A stretch of 64,000 bases of DNA from Heterodera schachtii (Eukaryota; Nematoda; Chromadorea; Rhabditida; Heteroderidae). Positions 22,991-34,441 of the stretch are shown here, piece by piece; position 1 is the first letter of the stretch, and each line of letters begins with the position of its first letter. The stretch spans positions 1,312,904 to 1,376,903 of the forward strand of contig SIJG01000010.1 of assembly GCA_023374025.1 (NCBI GenBank), read 5' to 3'. The translations under genes and the position numbers were made by a program. The notes beneath the pieces are model-generated. The model was not told where the DNA came from, did no database searches, and saw nothing but the letters and a program-made list of their open reading frames with translations.

Positions 22991-23394
22991 ACGCCTAGTT
23001 GTAATTACCATATTTATTTTTAAGTAAATTTTATGCAAGTAAATGATTGTCCAAAATAAATTAACAGAAGCTCCAAACCATCGTTTTCCCAGTGAATCAT
23101 AGAAAAATCAGTTGATTGAATAAACCAAACCAAATTATGGTGATTAATTCACATTTTGTGCATATACAACTCAATTCACACATTGTTAATTCATTCATTC
23201 ATTTGGTTAGCATTTTAGATGGAATTTCAACGATAATTTTTCAACAGAATTTTTTGTAGAAATGACCATTATTTTAATTCTTGTTCAATTAGGGAAGTGT
23301 TCCTTCGTGCTAATTATACAGTAATAAACCCAATTAAGGGTACCAAATTTTTGCTTTTGAGTTCTTGAAAATTGCCTAATCGCATAAATTATTT

Positions 23395-23406
23395 TTATGT
23401 TTTAGG
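23395..23406 (+). promoter_or_regulatory. Likely splice or trans-splice acceptor
   Basis: TTTTTATGTTTTAG lies about 32 bp upstream of ATG 23437, the expected place for a 5' leader junction in a nematode gene. Confidence 0.4.
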
Positions 23407-23436
23407 GTGGTGAAAACCATTCGTAAAAATTGTAAA

Positions 23437-23940
23437 ATGTTCACCAAATCTCATTATAATCTCATGCTGTTATTCTTTGCCGTGCACTTGGATATCACCG
23501 TTCTATCAGCCAACACCCACCAAAATAGCCCAGCCGATGCCGTTGGAAATGGCACCACCAATGCCCGTGGTAATGGTTCGGTGCCCGTTGAAATGGCACA
23601 CCATAATAATATAATAATTAATCTATCAGCCAACACTCACCAAAATGGCCCAGCCGATTCCCGCGGAAATGGCACCACCAATGCCCGTGGTAATATGGCA
23701 CACGATAATATTATAATAATTAATCTATCAGCCAACACCGACCAAAATGGCCAAGCCGATTCCCTGGGAAATGCCTCAACCGCAGACAAGGAAAGTGCCA
23801 TTGTCCGTAAAAAACGTCAGCCGGTGTTATTGAGAAATTCTTTTGTGAATTCCTTTTGGAGGGCACTTGATCCAAAGACCGGGCAAATCCGTCCAAATGC
23901 AGCTGCCGACCCGGCCGGATTGGAACTTGGCGAAAATGCG
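23437..23940 (+). CDS. Exon 1: signal peptide, repeats, RKKR site
   Basis: MFTKSHYNLMLLFFAVHLDI begins a signal peptide with likely cleavage after LSA (about residue 25). Residues 26-115 repeat the unit NLSANTxQNGxADxxGN. RKKR at 124-127 is a good furin-type site followed by a Phe/Trp-containing segment (NSFVNSFWRAL). The exon ends GAAAATGCG/GTAATT after 168 codons. The open frame to TGA 23955 is read-through into the intron. A longer GTG start at 23407 is less likely since it would push the signal peptide inward. Confidence 0.75.
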
Positions 23941-26900
23941 GTAATTAGCGACTGACCTTTTTCGAGTTTTTGTACCGAGGGTGACACTACAAATACTAAT
24001 CCGCAATTAGACTGAAAATCTAACAAATTTAAGGATTCAATTTAAAACAATTAAAACGCTTTATTTAAATTATTTTGTTTTTGACTGAATTTCCAAATTC
24101 TTTCTCAAGTCTTAGGAAATTTTCAGTCACGAGCTAAGAGAGCTCTAGGAATTGGTTGCTAAAAGCCATAATTCACGTACTTAGGCTAATACTAATTAGG
24201 TGTTTGCGATGGAACCAAGCCATTGTTACGAAAAGTGTCCATGCAAATGGGGCAATTGCATCAAATTGCCCGACGGACCGACCATTCAGAAGGAGGGGGA
24301 CGAATGTTGTGCAGCAAACCATCAATTTAAATGCTGCCAAGTAAATATTAAAAAAAAAATTAGTGGAGCTAAGGAATTCTGCCTCAAAAACTAATTAATA
24401 AATTTTATTTTGATGAGTTGTCCTATTAACTCTTCTGCCATTTTCAGGTGCCCGATTTGTTTCCGGATAATATGGTAATTAATTAATTTAATTTTGAAAA
24501 TAAATAAATATTTGCTGCTAATTTTAGAAAGCCATCACCGAATCTCTCCAAGTATCATTCTTTTCTACATAATTCTTATTTTTTTTAAATTGCTAAATTA
24601 AATATTGGGGACAAAATGGAACTTGGAAATTCGGAGATTTTGTGAAAAAAAGTCGCGTCATGAAGAGAACCGCCTGTTTTGGAACCTAAACGATACTCAC
24701 TTTTGCAAATTCTTTCCCCCAAATTTAGAGCAAATGCATTAAAACTGTGCCGTTCTTCCCGGATTATTGTGAGGTTGAGATTAATTGCCGAAAGTTTGGT
24801 GTTACTGTATATGCCAATGGCACCAAAAAAGTTCAACGATATTTGTATGATTTTTCTGGTTGCTACTACAACAGGAAGGAGGTCGAAGCACTAGTTAATA
24901 AAAACGAGGTAAATCGAACTGTTTTCCTATTTAGGTATTTGTGGTGATACGCGAATCCAGAGTGGGAAATGTCTTGGGTTTTGATGGTCCAAGATTCCCT
25001 AATTACGGCATTTTCGACCCCCCCCCCCCTCCTCCCTCCTCTCATAATAACGAGTATTTATTTCCGTTATTTAAAAAACTACGTATTACGGGTTATGATT
25101 TTCCAGAATTGAAATCCAGTTACGCCCAGCCCTGTTAGGTTTAGGTTTCGGGACCAAATTACGGTCTAGAGCGAGTGCATCATCGTTTGACCACTTACAA
25201 GGGAACATTCCGAACTGTCACTTCTCAAAAGCAGTATTCGGCAAAAATATGTTACTTTTAAAACTCTTTTTGTCCACTATCATCATTTTAGATATTTTTT
25301 GTATAAATGAAAAATTGACCCCTTTTTGAGCAAATTGTTTAGCGGACAAGAAAGATTACAATATGTTCGAAATGAAAACAAAAATATGGCAAACCCTCGC
25401 CCCCCAAAAAAACTCGACATGGACTTGGTCCAGGCCTGGATTTTGCTGGATAAACGCATTTTATTGTCTATTCGATACTTTTAGATGTTCCTATTAAGCA
25501 ATTAATTGATTTTTTTCAAACATGTGGTTTGCTTTAAGATTTAAGAAAAAATCCAGGTCCAAGCCTGGATTTTTCCTGCACCTGGATTTTTGTGCATGAA
25601 AATCAGGTCCAACATTGAACCCAGCTTAAGTCCAGGCTTTTTCAAATTGTCGAGCTCTAATAAATACAATACCATCTCCACATCCTTTAAATAATTTTTA
25701 AGTGTTTTTGTTTTTTTAAAGAATTACTTCTTCTTTGAACATGCCAATTGCTCGCGATGCGGATGGGCTTTGTGTGCCACTTTCAATACCAACAATAAAC
25801 GCACGTGTACTGATTTTGCCTGCAAATGTTGTGACTACGAAAGTCTTGTCGCTTCACAATGGGTTCGACGAAAACATATTTTAAAAAATTTATATAATTA
25901 GTAAATAATTGTTTGTTTATACATATAAATTATTATCTTCATTAAATTACAATAAAAAGAAAAAAATGTAAATCACTCTAATTAATTATAAAACACACTC
26001 CCCCTCATTCGGTATATAAAATAAAATAAAAATACACCACTAAAAATCGAAATTCAGCCCCCCCTCCACCGAAGTGAAGGGTCTTTGTTGTTACGCCCTT
26101 GATGCATCATTGAGTTGCGGTGGGAGTAATTCAAATAACGGTCCCTACCCGTCGAATTTTGCCAATTTTTTGGATTTATAAATCACGGCTCGCTCGTGAA
26201 TTGAGCAGTTCATTAATTAATTGATTGGGTGCGCGGGTAAAGAATAAATTGGTTTTAATATTTCACCATTTTTTTGCAGAAAATTGGCGCTTCTTGTAAA
26301 TATAAACCGGAAAATAAATGTGCAGTGTGCAAATGGAAACTGAACGATGATGAGAAGGGGGTGGAGACGTGCTGTAACATGAAAGGGCTTAAGAAATGCT
26401 TCGGCGTAAGTAACTTTTCGGGAAAAGGTCGTTTCGGCGAAGCGGTTTCAGCGCCAGCCAAAGTTTTGGACTATATTTGTTTTATTTTCAACCAAACCCA
26501 ACAATCTTGATACCATTCGAAAGCTCTTCGCCTGCTCTATTAGCCTGAAAAAATACAAAGATTTTTCAAGCATGTAAGAAAGTTAAGCAAAAACTTCAAA
26601 ATTTCAACTTTTTTGCAATTTTCATTATATATTTTTGGTAATTATCTAATCGCGAACTTGGGTTGGTGCCGAAACGGCGGCGGCGCCACCCTAAATTTTC
26701 ACCGCCGTTTTTCCCGGTCTTCTCCAGATTTTTTTCGATTTTTTTTTAGCCCAATAAACAGCCAGAGAACGAAAAAATCATGGTAATATTTTAAATTTAA
26801 TTTGTCTTTGTCAATTTATTTTATTAGCTTACGCTTCGGAGTTTTTTTTCTTATAGTTTTTAATTGTTTAATTGTTCTCCCACAAAATGTTTGGATTTTA

Positions 26901-29472: not shown

Positions 29473-29954
29473 GTAATACCTAATTAATTGTCTGTCATAC
29501 GCTTTCACCAAGGCTAAGGCTTTTCTCAAAATTTTTTTTTTTAAGTTTTCACTACAAAAAATGTTCTAAAAGCCTGGCTAAATAACGAAGCGATAGTTTT
29601 ATAATAAATGTTTTATATTTTTTGAAAGAAAAATAACATATTAAAAATTTAATTTAATTAAAAAAATTAATTTATTTATAAAAATATTCTAAAAAGTGAA
29701 ATAGTAATAAATATTTATTTTACGAGAATAATAAATTAAGTATATTTTATTTTATATTGTCGCGGAAAGCGACATAAATTCATTAATCATTTAATTAGTT
29801 TTTGTTCATTAATTTATCAATCAATTTTCTCTCGGTCGCTTTAATTATGAGTCATCCTTTTCCCTTTGCATTCATTTTTCCTATGAGTCATCGATCGATT
29901 TTTGTGTGTGCATTTGTCCACGTGATTTGCTCCGCCCCCATTGATTTGTGAGGG

Positions 29955-29960
29955 TATAAA
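29955..29960 (+). promoter_or_regulatory. TATA box of the 5' LTR
   Basis: GGTATAAAAGCCC; transcription would start about 29985. The same box is in the 3' LTR at 33973-33978. Confidence 0.65.
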
Positions 29961-30062
29961 AGCCCGTCCCATTCTCATTCTCATCACTTCTTCTCTACCA
30001 CTCAATTCTTCACTTCTTCTCAGAACCACTTCCACTCACCAAATTATATTTATATTTAATTG

Positions 30063-30068
30063 AATAAA
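30063..30068 (+). terminator. Poly(A) signal AATAAA in the LTR
   Basis: AATAAA followed by GAGTAAG; the functional copy would be in the 3' LTR near 34081. Confidence 0.5.
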
Positions 30069-30321
30069 GAGTAAGAGAAAAGCTCTTCTCTCAATCTGTA
30101 AAAGGGACAATCAGGAGCCCTTTCTTACAGACCATTAATTTGACCCCCGTTGGGTCATTAAGAGAGTTACAGAGAACTCTCAGTTTCAGTGTCCACATTT
30201 GGACATTGAATTCAGCACTTGAATTTTCAACACTGTCCCCGTCGGACAGGGAAAGGAAAGAATTCCCTTGGAGGGAAAGATTTCCTTTCCAGTGATTTTT
30301 TGTCCATTCCGCGACAAAAAT

Positions 30322-30339
30322 TGGAGCCCCGTAGGGGTC
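30322..30339 (+). other. Primer-binding site candidate
   Basis: TGGAGCCCCGTAGGGG begins five bases after the 5' LTR; TGG is the complement of a tRNA CCA end. The tRNA species was not identified. It also forms a hairpin with GCTCC at about 30347. Confidence 0.5.
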
Positions 30340-30416
30340 AAGCTCCAGTCGTAGCTTACCCCCTCAATTGAGAGAAGTCCAAGCTTTGAACAAAGCTTGT
30401 CCAACATTCGTAAGAG

Positions 30417-33400
30417 ATGAGTGAACTCTTACGAATCACAATCGCACCGATTGTGAAGCGTCTCAAATTGTACATTGAGACGGCTCAGGAAAATCTTACA
30501 AAAGATTTGACTGAGCAAATCAAAACCGATTTGCTCGCAGAGAGACAAAATCTCTGTAGAGCAGTGTCATTGTTGGAAAAAAACAATGACAAGTGGGAGG
30601 CAGTCTTCCACCGAGTTAAAGGTCCTGCTCTTCAGGAAGAAGAGCAGAACTACAAGGACTACAAACCGGAAGGAAAAGCCTTCATGGAATGGGCCGACCA
30701 AGCCCGAGGGCTTGTCGACACCATTGATGGGGCTTTAGGCCTCTCAGAGCAGGGGGATGTCGTTCACCCTGCACAGGTTCAACAACCTGCTCAAAACCCG
30801 CCACAAGTGGTGGTGGCTCCGCAGCGGCATGAAGTGATGCTGCCGCCCATTTCGCTTCCAAAATTCTCGGGTGAGCCCCGAGAATGGCCTTTATTTTGGA
30901 AGCTCTTTGAGACTTCAGTTGAAAGTCTTCAAATTGAAGACTTCAAAAAACACATTTATCTCTTGGGATGTCTTCCCGAGAAGTCAGTTGCTCGTAGAGC
31001 AATTGATTTGTACCCGCCTTCAGATGAAAACTACCCACGAGTGGTAGAAATCCTCAAGAAAAGATTTGGGGATGAGAAGTCAATTGTGGAGACACTCCAA
31101 TCAGAGTTGCTCCACCTTCCAAAACCGTCAGATTCTGTTCAATCTCTGAGGCAGTTCTCAGAGTCAATTGAAAGGATTTGTCAGCAATTATCGGATTTTG
31201 GAGAAAATGAACAGAATAAGTTCATGGCTTCCACGATAAAATCCAAATTGCCATACTATCTCCTCACTCAGGTGGTGGAGAAGGAAATGCGTTCAGGTGG
31301 AACTTTTGATTGTTCCGACCTACGCAAGGCAATCACTTCCATTGTGGAAGTGAAGGAAGAAGTACAAAGATGTACACTAGTCTTCCGGGGGGAAGAAAAA
31401 CCCCGAAATTTTCCTCCTCAAATCCAGAGGAACAATTTCCAAGGGAGAGAAACAGATTTCCCTCCCAACCAATTTCGTCAGGGTCATTGGCGACCCAACA
31501 ACGGACGATCCAACAACGTAAATGACTCTGTGGGGATGATGTCTCCCCAAGTTGACAGATCATTTCTAGCAATGCAAAAGCCACGATTCTCTCAGCGAGA
31601 AACAGGGACAAGACAAATTTGTTCCCTATGTGGTGCAGTGGGACACCCTCCAAGCCGGTGTCCCAAATATTCAACATCAGAAGCACGCAGAAGACGGCTC
31701 GCAAAGCAACGAAAATGTTTCAATTGCCTTTTGAAAGGCCACAAAGCACAAAATTGCAATTCTCCAAGGAGATGCTTGAAATGTGGTGGGAAACACCACT
31801 ACATGATTTGTCGTTATGGAGATACTCCAAAAGTGAGCACTCGCCAAACGACAAAGGAAACGAGGACTGTTCAGAGGAAACAGTCATCCAAACGAAGAGG
31901 AGAGCCTCCTCGTTCAAACAAAACCAATTATTCTAAAATATGCGTTTCCTCTGTTGTAGAGGATAAACCGTCTGAAGGTCATGCTTTCGACGGCAAATCA
32001 ACAAATGGGTTGATAAATGTGGCAAAGAAGTCACATGCACTTTCTACAATGAGTCGTGTCGTGGTCAAAAGGCGTGACCATCAAAGAATGATCGAAAACT
32101 CAGTTGTTTTCGATCAGGCGTGCCAGACGTCTTCCCAATCTAACTTTCATATCGGTGAGCAGAAATCACCGAAATTACCTTCCACGGAAAGGGAATTCTG
32201 TGGAGGTAAAAATAATGGAAAGGTGTTCCATTCAATTTTTTCCATTCGGATCAAAAGAATGGACAACAAATGGGAAGAAATTCTTCCAAATGAAGCAGAG
32301 CAACTAGCCTTATTGTGGGCCTTTTGTCTTTCCATCAGCATAAGCCTGATGGTTCGCTCAATTTTAAGAGTCCTTTCTTTTGGACTTAAAGTCATTGCGT
32401 TGCTAATGACACAATTCAAAGTATCAATACTTTGTTTTGTTATTCAAAAGACGCCTCCCTTTCAACAAAAAAGACAAAGAGAGGCACTCCCTCCATATTG
32501 TACCAAACGCCATATTTTGCGAAAAATGGCCTTTATAGTAATTTTTGCGTGTTTGTTCTACCTTCCAGTTAAGGGGGGAACAGAAACAAGTGCATATCCA
32601 ACAGATCAATGCAATGAGTGTAAACTCATTTGCTCAAACAAAGGTGTTTTGGCAAAAATTCCGAAAGAAATTCGGAAAGTGAAACTTTGTTGTTCTGAAA
32701 ATTGTTACATTCATGAGAATGTACACAAACTCATTCATGAATTTCCAAAAGAAATTCTTCAAGTTATTACGTGGTCTTTAATTCGTAAAGACTACGGTAC
32801 AACGAGTACAGTATTATTAATGCTGTACTTGGCGGGGGGAGAATCCTTCAGATGTGGTGTTGAATCACGTTCCATTCTTCTCCCGGCCTCGAAAAAATTC
32901 TTCAAACATGAGTCACCACGGACTCACAAAAATGACTCATCGAAAATTTTCGATTCAGAGTCTGATCACGTGATTTACGTGATGGATAATCGTATAAAAG
33001 GGTGGGAGATTTCCCACCCAACCACATTTTTCAAATCAGACATAAGGGAAATGCCTATTCCCTTTCGAGAAGGTTCATTCTTCTCGGCTCGTCGGGTGAA
33101 CATACCCGAGAATGCTGAGATCATCAACGATCGCTTTTTTGAGATTGGCGACCCAGAAAGAGACCAGGAGGAGAGAGTTCCTCTCCGACGTGAACCACGC
33201 GTTCATCGTCAAACTGAACAATTGAGCTCATGGATTGAGCGGTCTCATGGATCGCACTGGTATGAGACAATACGGGATCGCCGTATTGTCGATGAGGACC
33301 TTTGCAGAGAGCTTCGTAGAGGAGCCACTCTAATTGGCGAACATTTTGGCAGAGCTGTCGATATTCATTTCGATGGACTCACCTGTTATGGTCCGGAGGG

Positions 33401-33701
33401 TCTATACCTTTCTCCGGGTCTAACAGTTCTTGACCATTTTGTGCGGTTGGGTCTCCAAGTAGACCCATTAACACCGTGCATACAAGAATATGTGGGCTTC
33501 AGCCCTCATGAGGGAGGGATGTTAGTCGATCTTTACCCGATCGAGCTTGTAAGCATCCGACATCGAGTCCGAGTTCGATGGAGAGCTCCAGAGGAGGATG
33601 AACTTAATCCTCCTGCACGTTATCGAGCCCAATCCCCTGATGGGCATCTGGAGAACCGTCCTCAACGTGTGGTCCGACGACGTCCAGTGAACCGATGGTG
33701 A
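30417..33701 (+). CDS. Gag-type polyprotein, 1094 residues
   Basis: N-terminal helical region (1-110); a conserved Gag core near 145-310 (LPKFSGEPREWPLFWKLFE ... RFGDEKSIVETL) of the DUF1759 type found in BEL/Pao elements. Three zinc-knuckle-like motifs at about 402-465: CSLCGAVGHPPSRC, CFNCLLKGHKAQNC and CLKCGGKHHYMIC. Then a Ser-rich basic part, a hydrophobic stretch at about 632-675, a second signal-like stretch near 705-720 followed by a Cys cluster (CNECKLIC ... CCSENC), and a 300-residue C-terminus rich in Arg and acidic residues. The last parts may be relics of an envelope-like or post-integrase region fused in frame after loss of pol; this is inference. The ATG lies in the loop of an 11-bp hairpin. 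The frame is fully open, suggesting selection or youth. Confidence 0.85.
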   Translation: MSELLRITIAPIVKRLKLYIETAQENLTKDLTEQIKTDLLAERQNLCRAVSLLEKNNDKWEAVFHRVKGPALQEEEQNYKDYKPEGKAFMEWADQARGLVDTIDGALGLSEQGDVVHPAQVQQPAQNPPQVVVAPQRHEVMLPPISLPKFSGEPREWPLFWKLFETSVESLQIEDFKKHIYLLGCLPEKSVARRAIDLYPPSDENYPRVVEILKKRFGDEKSIVETLQSELLHLPKPSDSVQSLRQFSESIERICQQLSDFGENEQNKFMASTIKSKLPYYLLTQVVEKEMRSGGTFDCSDLRKAITSIVEVKEEVQRCTLVFRGEEKPRNFPPQIQRNNFQGRETDFPPNQFRQGHWRPNNGRSNNVNDSVGMMSPQVDRSFLAMQKPRFSQRETGTRQICSLCGAVGHPPSRCPKYSTSEARRRRLAKQRKCFNCLLKGHKAQNCNSPRRCLKCGGKHHYMICRYGDTPKVSTRQTTKETRTVQRKQSSKRRGEPPRSNKTNYSKICVSSVVEDKPSEGHAFDGKSTNGLINVAKKSHALSTMSRVVVKRRDHQRMIENSVVFDQACQTSSQSNFHIGEQKSPKLPSTEREFCGGKNNGKVFHSIFSIRIKRMDNKWEEILPNEAEQLALLWAFCLSISISLMVRSILRVLSFGLKVIALLMTQFKVSILCFVIQKTPPFQQKRQREALPPYCTKRHILRKMAFIVIFACLFYLPVKGGTETSAYPTDQCNECKLICSNKGVLAKIPKEIRKVKLCCSENCYIHENVHKLIHEFPKEILQVITWSLIRKDYGTTSTVLLMLYLAGGESFRCGVESRSILLPASKKFFKHESPRTHKNDSSKIFDSESDHVIYVMDNRIKGWEISHPTTFFKSDIREMPIPFREGSFFSARRVNIPENAEIINDRFFEIGDPERDQEERVPLRREPRVHRQTEQLSSWIERSHGSHWYETIRDRRIVDEDLCRELRRGATLIGEHFGRAVDIHFDGLTCYGPEGLYLSPGLTVLDHFVRLGLQVDPLTPCIQEYVGFSPHEGGMLVDLYPIELVSIRHRVRVRWRAPEEDELNPPARYRAQSPDGHLENRPQRVVRRRPVNRW

Positions 33702-33775
33702 AAAGAAACTGATGGATGACGACAACAAAAAGAATGACGACAACAGAATTGTCGCCATCCTCGAGGCCCGGAGAA

Positions 33776-34334
33776 TGTCGCGGAAAGCGACATAAATTCA
33801 TTAATCATTTAATTAGTTTTTGTTCATTAATTTATCAATCAATTTTCTCTCGGTCGCTTTAATTATGAGTCATCCTTTTCCCTTTGCATTCATTTTTCCT
33901 ATGAGTCATCGATCGATTTTTGTGTGTGCATTTGTCCACGTGATTTGCTCCGCCCCCATTGATTTGTGAGGGTATAAAAGCCCGTCCCATTCTCATTCTC
34001 ATCACTTCTTCTCTACCACTCAATTCTTCACTTCTTCTCAGAACCACTTCCACTCACCAAATTATATTTATATTTAATTGAATAAAGAGTAAGAGAAAAG
34101 CTCTTCTCTCAATCTGTAAAAGGGACAATCAGGAGCCCTTTCTTACAGACCATTAATTTGACCCCCGTTGGGTCATTAAGAGAGTTACAGAGAACTCTCA
34201 GTTTCAGTGTCCACATTTGGACATTGAATTCAGCACTTGAATTTTCAACACTGTCCCCGTCGGACAGGGAAAGGAAAGAATTCCCTTGGAGGGAAAGATT
34301 TCCTTTCCAGTGATTTTTTGTCCATTCCGCGACA
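33776..34334 (+). repeat. 3' LTR
   Basis: 559 bp, same as the 5' LTR by eye. A short purine run CGGAGAA precedes it as a possible polypurine tract. Confidence 0.95.
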
Positions 34335-34345
34335 TATATAATGAG

Positions 34346-34441
34346 GTTGAAACGAGGCATAAACTGAACGAAAACTGCAAGCTCAATGCTGTTTTTCATG
34401 GAAAAAAGCGGTTATCCACGGATAAAGCCCTGTGGAATTGA
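34346..34441 (+). CDS. Possible exon just after the retroelement
   Basis: After ATGAG the frame reads VETRHKLNENCKLNAVFHGK, KRLSTDKALWN and stops. Codon content is unlike the AT-rich flanks. It could be a terminal exon of the gene represented by 29336-29472, split off by the retroelement, but the phases do not obviously match. Confidence 0.3.
   Translation, partial: VETRHKLNENCKLNAVFHGKKRLSTDKALWN

What the first reader, a model, noticed from the sequence alone, without database searches (positions are those of the whole stretch)
30068..33770. Retroelement transcript tiled end to end with short perfect hairpins
Reading the element, almost every 20-35 bases form a perfect inverted repeat with a 6-11 bp stem and 3-15 nt loop, and the next begins where the last ends. 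Examples: 30406-30416/30426-30436, 30437-30444/30448-30455, 30459-30466/30475-30482, 30513-30521/30528-30536, 30566-30574/30582-30590, 30863-30871/30877-30885, 31640-31647/31657-31664, 32090-32099/32106-32115, 33000-33007/33012-33019, 33592-33599/33607-33614. More than forty can be picked out by eye, including inside zinc-knuckle codons. The U3 promoter part of the LTR does not show it, which points to selection on RNA. Genome-scale ordered RNA structure is known in some RNA viruses, but I know of no retroelement with such regular local tiling. Possible roles: packaging, hiding from small-RNA silencing, or helping reverse transcription.
Basis: partly seen in the sequence, partly recalled or inferred. 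Interest (0 to 1): 0.92.

Follow-up and report, generated by a model that had tools for sequence, protein, structure and literature searches.

The report
Retrovirus-like RNA packed with tiny hairpins
A family of retrovirus-like elements, in what is likely a cyst nematode genome, carries roughly three to five times as many short perfect hairpins along its coding sequence as codon-shuffled versions do; the predicted folded RNA would likely be shielded from the worm's small-RNA silencing, which is not yet tested.

Summary
The hairpins are real. From the poly-A signal of the 5' LTR to the 3' LTR there are 69 non-overlapping perfect hairpins (18.6/kb; 3.3/kb after dinucleotide shuffling). The ORF has 17.4/kb, against 3.4/kb after codon shuffling that keeps the protein. 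They are dense, not regularly tiled.

The element is a recent (identical LTRs), internally deleted Bel/Pao copy in a Heterodera-like genome; a fuller relative encodes Gag, RT, integrase and a phlebovirus-like envelope. All 9 pol rows of one supported clade carry the excess; 24 other Bel/Pao rows do not, or only mildly.

Signs of selection on sense RNA: paired changes, slower third-codon change in stems, more G-U than A-C tolerance, and better folding of sense than antisense. Folding-energy excess is 35-49%; a paper gives 23.4% as the highest recorded for vertebrate RNA viruses, and MS2 gives 27.7% here.

I read it as genome-scale ordered RNA structure in a retroelement, probably shielding its RNA from RdRP/small-RNA silencing. 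Packaging is a close rival; a mutational origin is not excluded.

The parts
29753..29757 (.). target-site duplication TATAT, left
   Evidence: identical to 34335-34339
29758..30316 (+). 5' LTR, 559 nt, TG...CA, identical to the 3' LTR
   Evidence: 0 differences in 559; LTR matches in relatives
29758..30068 (+). U3-R part of the LTR (TATAAAA near 29955, AATAAA 30063-30068): few hairpins (4% of bases in stems)
   Evidence: single-window folding excess 5.8% for 29758-30109
30069..30316 (+). U5: hairpin-dense (8 hairpins, 40% of bases in stems)
   Evidence: U5 plus 5' UTR folding excess 44.5%, one window
30317..30416 (+). 5' untranslated stretch; putative primer-binding site near 30322 lies inside a hairpin
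   Evidence: sequence; the complement of 16 of its bases occurs 23 times in the genome, and no tRNA was found at 3 matches away from the places listed: primer tRNA not identified
30417..33701 (+). single ORF, 1094 aa, 17.4 perfect hairpins per kb
30864..31271 (+). DUF1759 domain (Bel/Pao Gag)
   Evidence: Pfam PF03564 E 5.8e-20; that it marks Bel/Pao Gag is recalled
31611..31805 (+). CCHC zinc knuckles (nucleocapsid-like)
   Evidence: PF14392 E 0.0011, below its cut-off; solved retroviral Gag/nucleocapsids from E 2.9e-4
32535..32759 (+). remnant matching the start of the envelope part of the fuller relative (75% identity)
   Evidence: aa 707-781 to L061 aa 788-854
32754..33653 (+). C-terminal remnant matching the stretch after the envelope fusion domains of the fuller relative (90% identity)
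   Evidence: aa 780-1079 to L061 aa 1483-1781
33776..34334 (+). 3' LTR, 559 nt
34335..34339 (.). target-site duplication TATAT, right

Best explanation
One clade of Bel/Pao elements, at least one of them with an envelope gene, carries a several-fold excess of short perfect hairpins along its predicted transcript, and these likely fold in the sense genomic RNA, where they would keep it closed to antisense small RNAs and RNA-dependent RNA polymerase. The window copy, which lacks pol, is tied to this clade by its Gag and LTR. Shown: the excess from U5 through gag and pol and, unevenly, the envelope region; its limit to one clade among the 33 Bel/Pao rows tested; few hairpins in U3-R of groups A and B; compensatory changes and slower third-codon change in stems; and a greater folding gain of the sense strand than of the antisense strand. 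Inferred: that the hairpins form in the cell, that selection rather than a copying error made them, and what they are for. In the model the element keeps overall structure, not particular hairpins: density is held while positions turn over (16 of 33 hairpins share centres in gag at 68% DNA identity, 10 of 40 in pol against the most distant member). The longest perfect stem in the six elements listed is 13 bp and most predicted pairs span 40 nt or less, so they would refold quickly and be too short for Dicer (the Dicer limit is recalled knowledge). Globodera pallida, a relative of the likely host, lacks piRNAs and has RdRP-derived small RNAs antisense to transposons; an RNA that is a poor template and poor target would escape this.
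For: Density; 47 of 47 open stretches listed for loci L001-L030 (up to three per locus, 230 aa or more, some overlapping) have 12.5-22.6/kb, shuffled 2.4-5.1. Clade: 9 of 9 rows on one branch (support 100/99) at 13.5-18.7/kb, against 24 of 24 other Bel/Pao rows at 2.6-7.2/kb. Folding (20 of the 60 loci): sense z -14 to -22 in 9 of 9 clade members, against +0.8 to -3.6 in 11 of 11 others; the sense-minus-antisense difference, less that of shuffles, is -0.8 to -2.4 kcal per 100 nt in 9 of 9, and -1.0 to +1.0 in the 11 others (worked out). Compensation: in 23 of 25 gag comparisons Watson-Crick double changes exceed the shuffled mean (the other two, near-identical copies, have none), in 4 of 25 they exceed all 500 shuffles, e.g. 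13 against a mean of 4.2; in pol 10 of 11 exceed the mean (one close pair has none), 5 of them at 5% or less, e.g. 22 against 11.1. Comparisons are not independent. Third codon positions differ less in stems in 15 of 15 gag comparisons (11 at p 0.05 or less) and 11 of 11 pol comparisons (7 at p below 0.05), e.g. 44/232 against 279/768. One-mismatch stems in six elements: G-U 43 against 11.3 shuffled, A-C 21 against 12.7. Turnover of positions and no shared loop motif. Freely open 8-mers: 0.069 against 0.123 shuffled in L001, and lower than shuffles in 6 of 6 clade rows. Host pathway: PMC4323106, passages.
Against: No probing or small-RNA data. Absolute openness of 8-mers in L001 (0.069) equals that of a GC-rich non-clade element (L032, 0.069), and another non-clade row is lower still (L053, 0.056), so shielding is not unusual in absolute terms. 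U3-R would stay exposed. Private young variants avoid stems no differently from fixed differences (odds ratios 0.84-2.30, all p at least 0.15), so ongoing mutational correction is not excluded. Codon phase shows no preference overall (156, 161, 140). A-C and other mismatched stems are also above shuffles. In the closer comparisons G-U does not exceed A-C, nor in several pol comparisons. One control (L059) overlaps the clade's sense-antisense shift. The RdRP gene search in this genome did not complete.
Confidence: 0.5

Rival explanations
1. The hairpins compact the genomic RNA for packaging into Gag particles, as the structured genome of phage MS2 is packed (recalled); the sequence of each hairpin matters little.
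For: Gag has zinc knuckles. Hairpins are densest in U5, the 5' UTR and early gag (18 in the first 583 nt), where retroviral packaging signals usually lie (recalled). MS2, by the same method, has a 27.7% folding-energy excess. Three further copies match the whole deleted ORF at 92-93%, so deleted copies were probably mobilised in trans (inference).
Against: No loop motif and no GNRA excess (4 of 58 four-base loops). Other Bel/Pao elements of the same genome, which presumably also need packaging, lack the feature. MS2 has only 6.4 perfect hairpins per kb.
Confidence: 0.3
2. A copying error made them: the clade's reverse transcriptase tends to fold back and correct near-palindromes into perfect ones, without selection for RNA structure.
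For: The G-U share of predicted pairs is below that of shuffles in 7 of 7 clade rows. No overall codon-phase preference. The private-versus-fixed test shows no difference. Restriction to one clade could reflect one unusual RT.
Against: U3-R is copied by the same enzyme but has few hairpins in the 10 of 10 group A and B copies that could be split; group C was not split. G-U stems exceed A-C stems (43 and 21), and the sense strand gains more folding, whereas correction of DNA should be strand-neutral. Slower third-position change in stems would need constant correction.
Confidence: 0.15
3. Ordinary consequence of base composition, codon use or AT-rich sequence.
For: AT-rich blocks of the window reach 13 hairpins per kb; two AT-rich, LINE-like controls have a 19-22% folding-energy excess.
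Against: Dinucleotide and codon shuffles of the element itself give 3.3-3.4/kb; it is GC-richer than the neighbouring blocks; other Bel/Pao elements with 31-59% GC lack it.
Confidence: 0.01

Closest known systems
[quoted passage not shown]
   Same: Many consecutive stem-loops through coding sequence; a folding energy below that of order-shuffled controls; pairings whose positions turn over between relatives (PMC7642675, passages; here).
   Different: Found here in an integrating reverse-transcribing element of a nematode. The excess is 35-49%, against 8% (HCV), 15% (SARS-CoV-2) and at most 23.4% quoted in that paper; my window, step and number of shuffles differ from theirs. In groups A and B it stops at the R/U5 border.
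Atlas virus, an endogenous belpaovirus of a hookworm with a phlebovirus-like envelope
   Same: Bel/Pao family with Gn/Gc-like envelope (PMC9094657, abstract start and passages); the fuller relative here has Phlebovirus_G2 at E 3.8e-67.
   Different: The term 'RNA structure' occurs 0 times in that paper's main text, and the single uses of 'secondary structure' and 'hairpin' concern the protein. Its DNA was not looked at here, so whether it has hairpins is untested.
Phage MS2 and satellite tobacco mosaic virus genomes as strings of stem-loops
   Same: Strong, ordered folding of a packaged RNA; MS2 measured here at 27.7%. The satellite virus is recalled only.
   Different: MS2 has 6.4 perfect short hairpins per kb (2.4 shuffled), against 13.5-18.7 in this clade's pol rows.

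Membership tests
Belpaoviridae (Bel/Pao LTR retrotransposons) | LTRs of 0.2-1.2 kb, whole genome 4.2-10 kb | tested here: met
   two identical 559-nt LTRs, 4577 nt in all, 5-bp duplication; criterion from PMC8742986, whole text
Belpaoviridae (Bel/Pao LTR retrotransposons) | Gag with capsid and nucleocapsid domains | tested here: met
   DUF1759 E 5.8e-20 and CCHC knuckles; that DUF1759 is the Bel/Pao capsid part is recalled
Belpaoviridae (Bel/Pao LTR retrotransposons) | Pol with protease, RT, RNase H and integrase | tested here: not met
   no match in the window copy. In the fuller relative L012/L061: Peptidase_A17 and integrase zinc-binding domain over cut-off; RVT_1 E 2.3e-6 and DUF1758 E 0.051 under cut-off; no RNase H or integrase core match listed. 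I take the window copy as a deletion derivative of a member.
Belpaoviridae (Bel/Pao LTR retrotransposons) | 18-nt primer-binding site for tRNA-Arg or tRNA-Gly | tested here: inconclusive
   candidate site near 30322; no tRNA at 3 of the 23 genome matches, the only ones tested
Genome-scale ordered RNA structure | mean folding energy clearly below order-shuffled controls across coding sequence | tested here: met
   34.6-49.1% in 7 of 7 clade rows; -1.9 to 14.4% in 5 of 5 others
Genome-scale ordered RNA structure | structure spread through the genome, pairings poorly conserved in position | tested here: met
   17 of 18 blocks of 200 aa in L001, L012 and L061 exceed all 60 codon shuffles; one block, in the envelope fusion domain, does not. 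10 of 40 and 8 of 36 hairpins share centres with the most distant member, against about 3 by rotation (maxima 9 and 7).
Genome-scale ordered RNA structure | folding shown on the RNA itself, and association with persistence | not testable with these tools
   no RNA data

The most novel reading that the evidence does not exclude
A clade of nematode retroviruses has evolved genome-long hairpin armour, stronger by folding-energy excess than any vertebrate RNA virus quoted in the paper I compared with, as a counter-defence against RdRP-driven RNA silencing in an animal lineage that lost piRNAs.
Probability: 0.3. Interest if true: 0.92.

Novelty: new variant of a known kind. Interest (0 to 1): 0.8.

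Why it matters
If the RNA folds as predicted, pervasive RNA structure is not confined to RNA viruses: among the Bel/Pao rows tested it marks one branch, with weakly structured sister lineages in the same genome as built-in controls. That makes an old question, what genome-wide structure is for, directly testable: small RNAs, packaging and copy-number growth can be compared between structured and unstructured lineages of one animal. The mutational alternative, an RT that makes palindromes, would also be new to me.

Tried and rejected
Composition or codon effect: rejected by shuffles. Regular tiling: rejected. Known RNA family: none over threshold in 29700-34400. Loop motif or special four-base loops as packaging signals: none found. 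Private-versus-fixed test of selection against correction: no difference, few sites. Codon phase: no overall preference. Primer tRNA: not found. DNA from other species: no relatives confirmed in viral contigs (two queries) or genome contigs (one query), so the feature outside this genome is untested; at protein level a Globodera rostochiensis protein nests inside the clade (99/95), on 27% of the alignment columns. RdRP gene in this genome: not completed. Literature: searches of the open PMC library listed (11 of 11, 5 of 5, 20 of 58, 0 of 0, 15 of 28 and 4 of 4 papers) none whose title or abstract start tells of such structure in a retrotransposon; most subscription journals are not held.
Full report
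What is there. The region is an LTR retroelement: two LTRs of 559 nt (29758-30316 and 33776-34334) without a difference, flanked by the duplication TATAT, and one ORF of 1094 aa with the Bel/Pao Gag domain DUF1759 and zinc knuckles. No pol domain was found in it. The host is probably Heterodera trifolii or a close relative: all 5 protein homologs found for the ORF carry that name, and the unnamed assembly has 178 Mb. The genome holds at least 52 matching stretches (42 of 424 candidates scored). A fuller relative on contig C304 has a 2933-aa open frame with Gag, a weak RVT_1 match, Peptidase_A17, an integrase zinc-binding domain, DUF5641 and a phlebovirus-type envelope (Phlebovirus_G2 E 3.8e-67). 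Its LTR matches the window's at 92% and its Gag at 77%. The window ORF joins the Gag part to two remnants of the envelope region, so I read it as an internal deletion derivative.

Is the observation more than chance? Yes. 69 perfect hairpins stand against about 12 expected; the highest of 200 codon-preserving shuffles of the ORF had 7.3/kb against 17.4. All ten named examples are exact. In groups A and B the boundary is sharp at the AATAAA signal: U3-R 4-16% of bases in stems, U5 24-40%, in 10 of 10 copies with landmarks. Seven of the 17 copies looked at (L015 and the six of group C) lacked the LTR-end motifs and were not split; in group C the excess over shuffles continues at least 750 bases upstream of the ORF, which does not fit a bare U3-R unless the LTR lies further out there.

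Who has it? I measured open stretches of 60 loci. On a tree of 33 pol rows, 9 rows form one branch (100/99), and all 9 have 13.5-18.7 hairpins/kb, 3.3 to 5.5 times their shuffles; 24 other Bel/Pao rows have 2.6-7.2/kb, the highest being L046 (7.2 against 2.7 shuffled). L046 met my label threshold (ratio 2.6), so the printed tree counts two changes, not one. Four further loci were left out for too little overlap. The rows come from the best 30 of 135 Peptidase_A17 matches and from the Gag search, not from all elements. Six other RT-bearing stretches (family not tested; three look LINE-like) have z from -1.0 to 3.3. Three HSP70 loci (longest open frames of about 200 aa) have 3.3, 5.0 and 3.6/kb against 1.8, 4.6 and 3.0, with folding excesses of 13.4, 0.5 and 9.1% on 3 windows each. 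At protein level a Globodera rostochiensis sequence falls inside the branch.

How strong is the structure? By the folding-energy-difference measure (351-nt windows, 10-12 dinucleotide shuffles) 7 of 7 clade rows have 34.6-49.1%. The other Bel/Pao rows tested have -1.9 to 16.3%, the six RT-bearing controls -3.5 to 21.8% and MS2 27.7%. The two highest controls are AT-rich (L066, L067; GC 0.29-0.30), where I think the percentage is inflated by a small base energy. The paper that uses this measure gives 7-9% for HCV in its abstract, about 15% for SARS-CoV-2 and 23.4% as the highest recorded for vertebrate RNA viruses (PMC7642675, passages). Most predicted pairs span 40 nt or less: 76-84% in 7 clade rows against about 60% in shuffles.

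RNA or DNA, selection or mutation? Perfect hairpins are strand-neutral, so I looked at what is not. One-mismatch stems hold 43 G-U (11.3 expected) but 21 A-C (12.7 expected), although other mismatches also exceed shuffles (63 against 39.4). The sense strand gains more stability over shuffles than the antisense strand in 9 of 9 clade members; one of 11 controls (L059) shows a shift of similar size to the smallest of these. Between copies, double changes restore Watson-Crick pairs more often than shuffled partners do, and third codon positions change less in stems, e.g. 44/232 against 279/768, p = 4e-7. Against the most distant member, third positions are near saturation and this signal is lost (p 0.3-0.4), while compensation remains in 3 of 4 of those comparisons. 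Against a clean story: the G-U excess is missing in the closer between-copy comparisons and in several pol comparisons; the private-versus-fixed test shows nothing; and hairpins show no overall codon-phase preference. A fold-back copying error therefore remains possible, but it does not explain the bare U3-R of groups A and B or the strand bias.

What is it for? Density persists while positions turn over, and no loop motif is shared, so the selected thing, if any, is folding in general. In Globodera pallida, of the same family (family recalled), piRNAs were not detected and RdRP-type small RNAs run antisense to transposons (PMC4323106, passages). RdRP copies RNA templates and Argonautes need open target sites (general knowledge), so a string of fast-folding short hairpins is a plausible shield. 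Compared with its own codon shuffles, L001 has about half as many freely open 8-mers; yet a GC-rich non-clade element reaches the same absolute value without extra hairpins. Compaction for packaging is the closest rival and fits the dense 5' end. I commit to shielding as most likely, at about even odds together with RNA-level selection; RNA-level selection alone I hold at about 0.8.

Novelty. The kind, genome-scale ordered RNA structure, is known in RNA viruses. My searches listed no report in a retrotransposon or belpaovirus, judged by titles and abstract starts. The ICTV summary of the family (PMC8742986, whole text) does not mention it. I file it as a new variant of a known kind.

Noticed in passing
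L061 (G000:C304:6916-12700), aa 804-1478: The fuller relative encodes a phlebovirus G1/G2-type envelope (G2 E 3.8e-67, G2_C E 8.5e-12, G1 E 7e-4, the last below its cut-off), so it is endogenous-retrovirus-like, comparable to hookworm Atlas virus.
   Followed up: partly
L053, L054, L056: A Bel/Pao lineage outside the clade has a moderate folding-energy excess (10-16%) with few perfect hairpins.
   Followed up: partly
L066, L067: Two AT-rich LINE-like elements show a 19-22% folding-energy excess; not explained beyond their low base energy.
   Followed up: no
upstream 1500 bases of L020, L024, L026, L028, L029, L030 (group C): Hairpin excess reaches further upstream of the ORF than in groups A and B; LTR ends not located there.
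   Followed up: no
L022, L023, L019 against L001 and L012: These copies are 97-98% identical to both groups A and B over their 345-375 aligned codons, while complete A and B gag pieces differ by 15%: the 5' part is shared or exchanged between groups.
   Followed up: no
window:12354-13340 (-) and 23380-23955 (+): A 24-bp minisatellite with open frames on both strands (NALGNGPA-type repeats on the minus strand) shares the motif LSANT(D/H)QN with the repetitive ORF at 23.4 kb: perhaps two members of one repeat-rich gene family.
   Followed up: no
window:52035-53242: A 1.2-kb purine-rich (GA) tract; GC skew 0.76 in the 2-kb block that holds it.
   Followed up: no
window:22170-22849: Nested tandem repeats with periods 85, 119, 170 and 204 built on TTAGTTGGCGAAA.
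   Followed up: no
window:36390-36900 (approximate): A run of unknown bases (gap or withheld stretch) gives false open frames.
   Followed up: no
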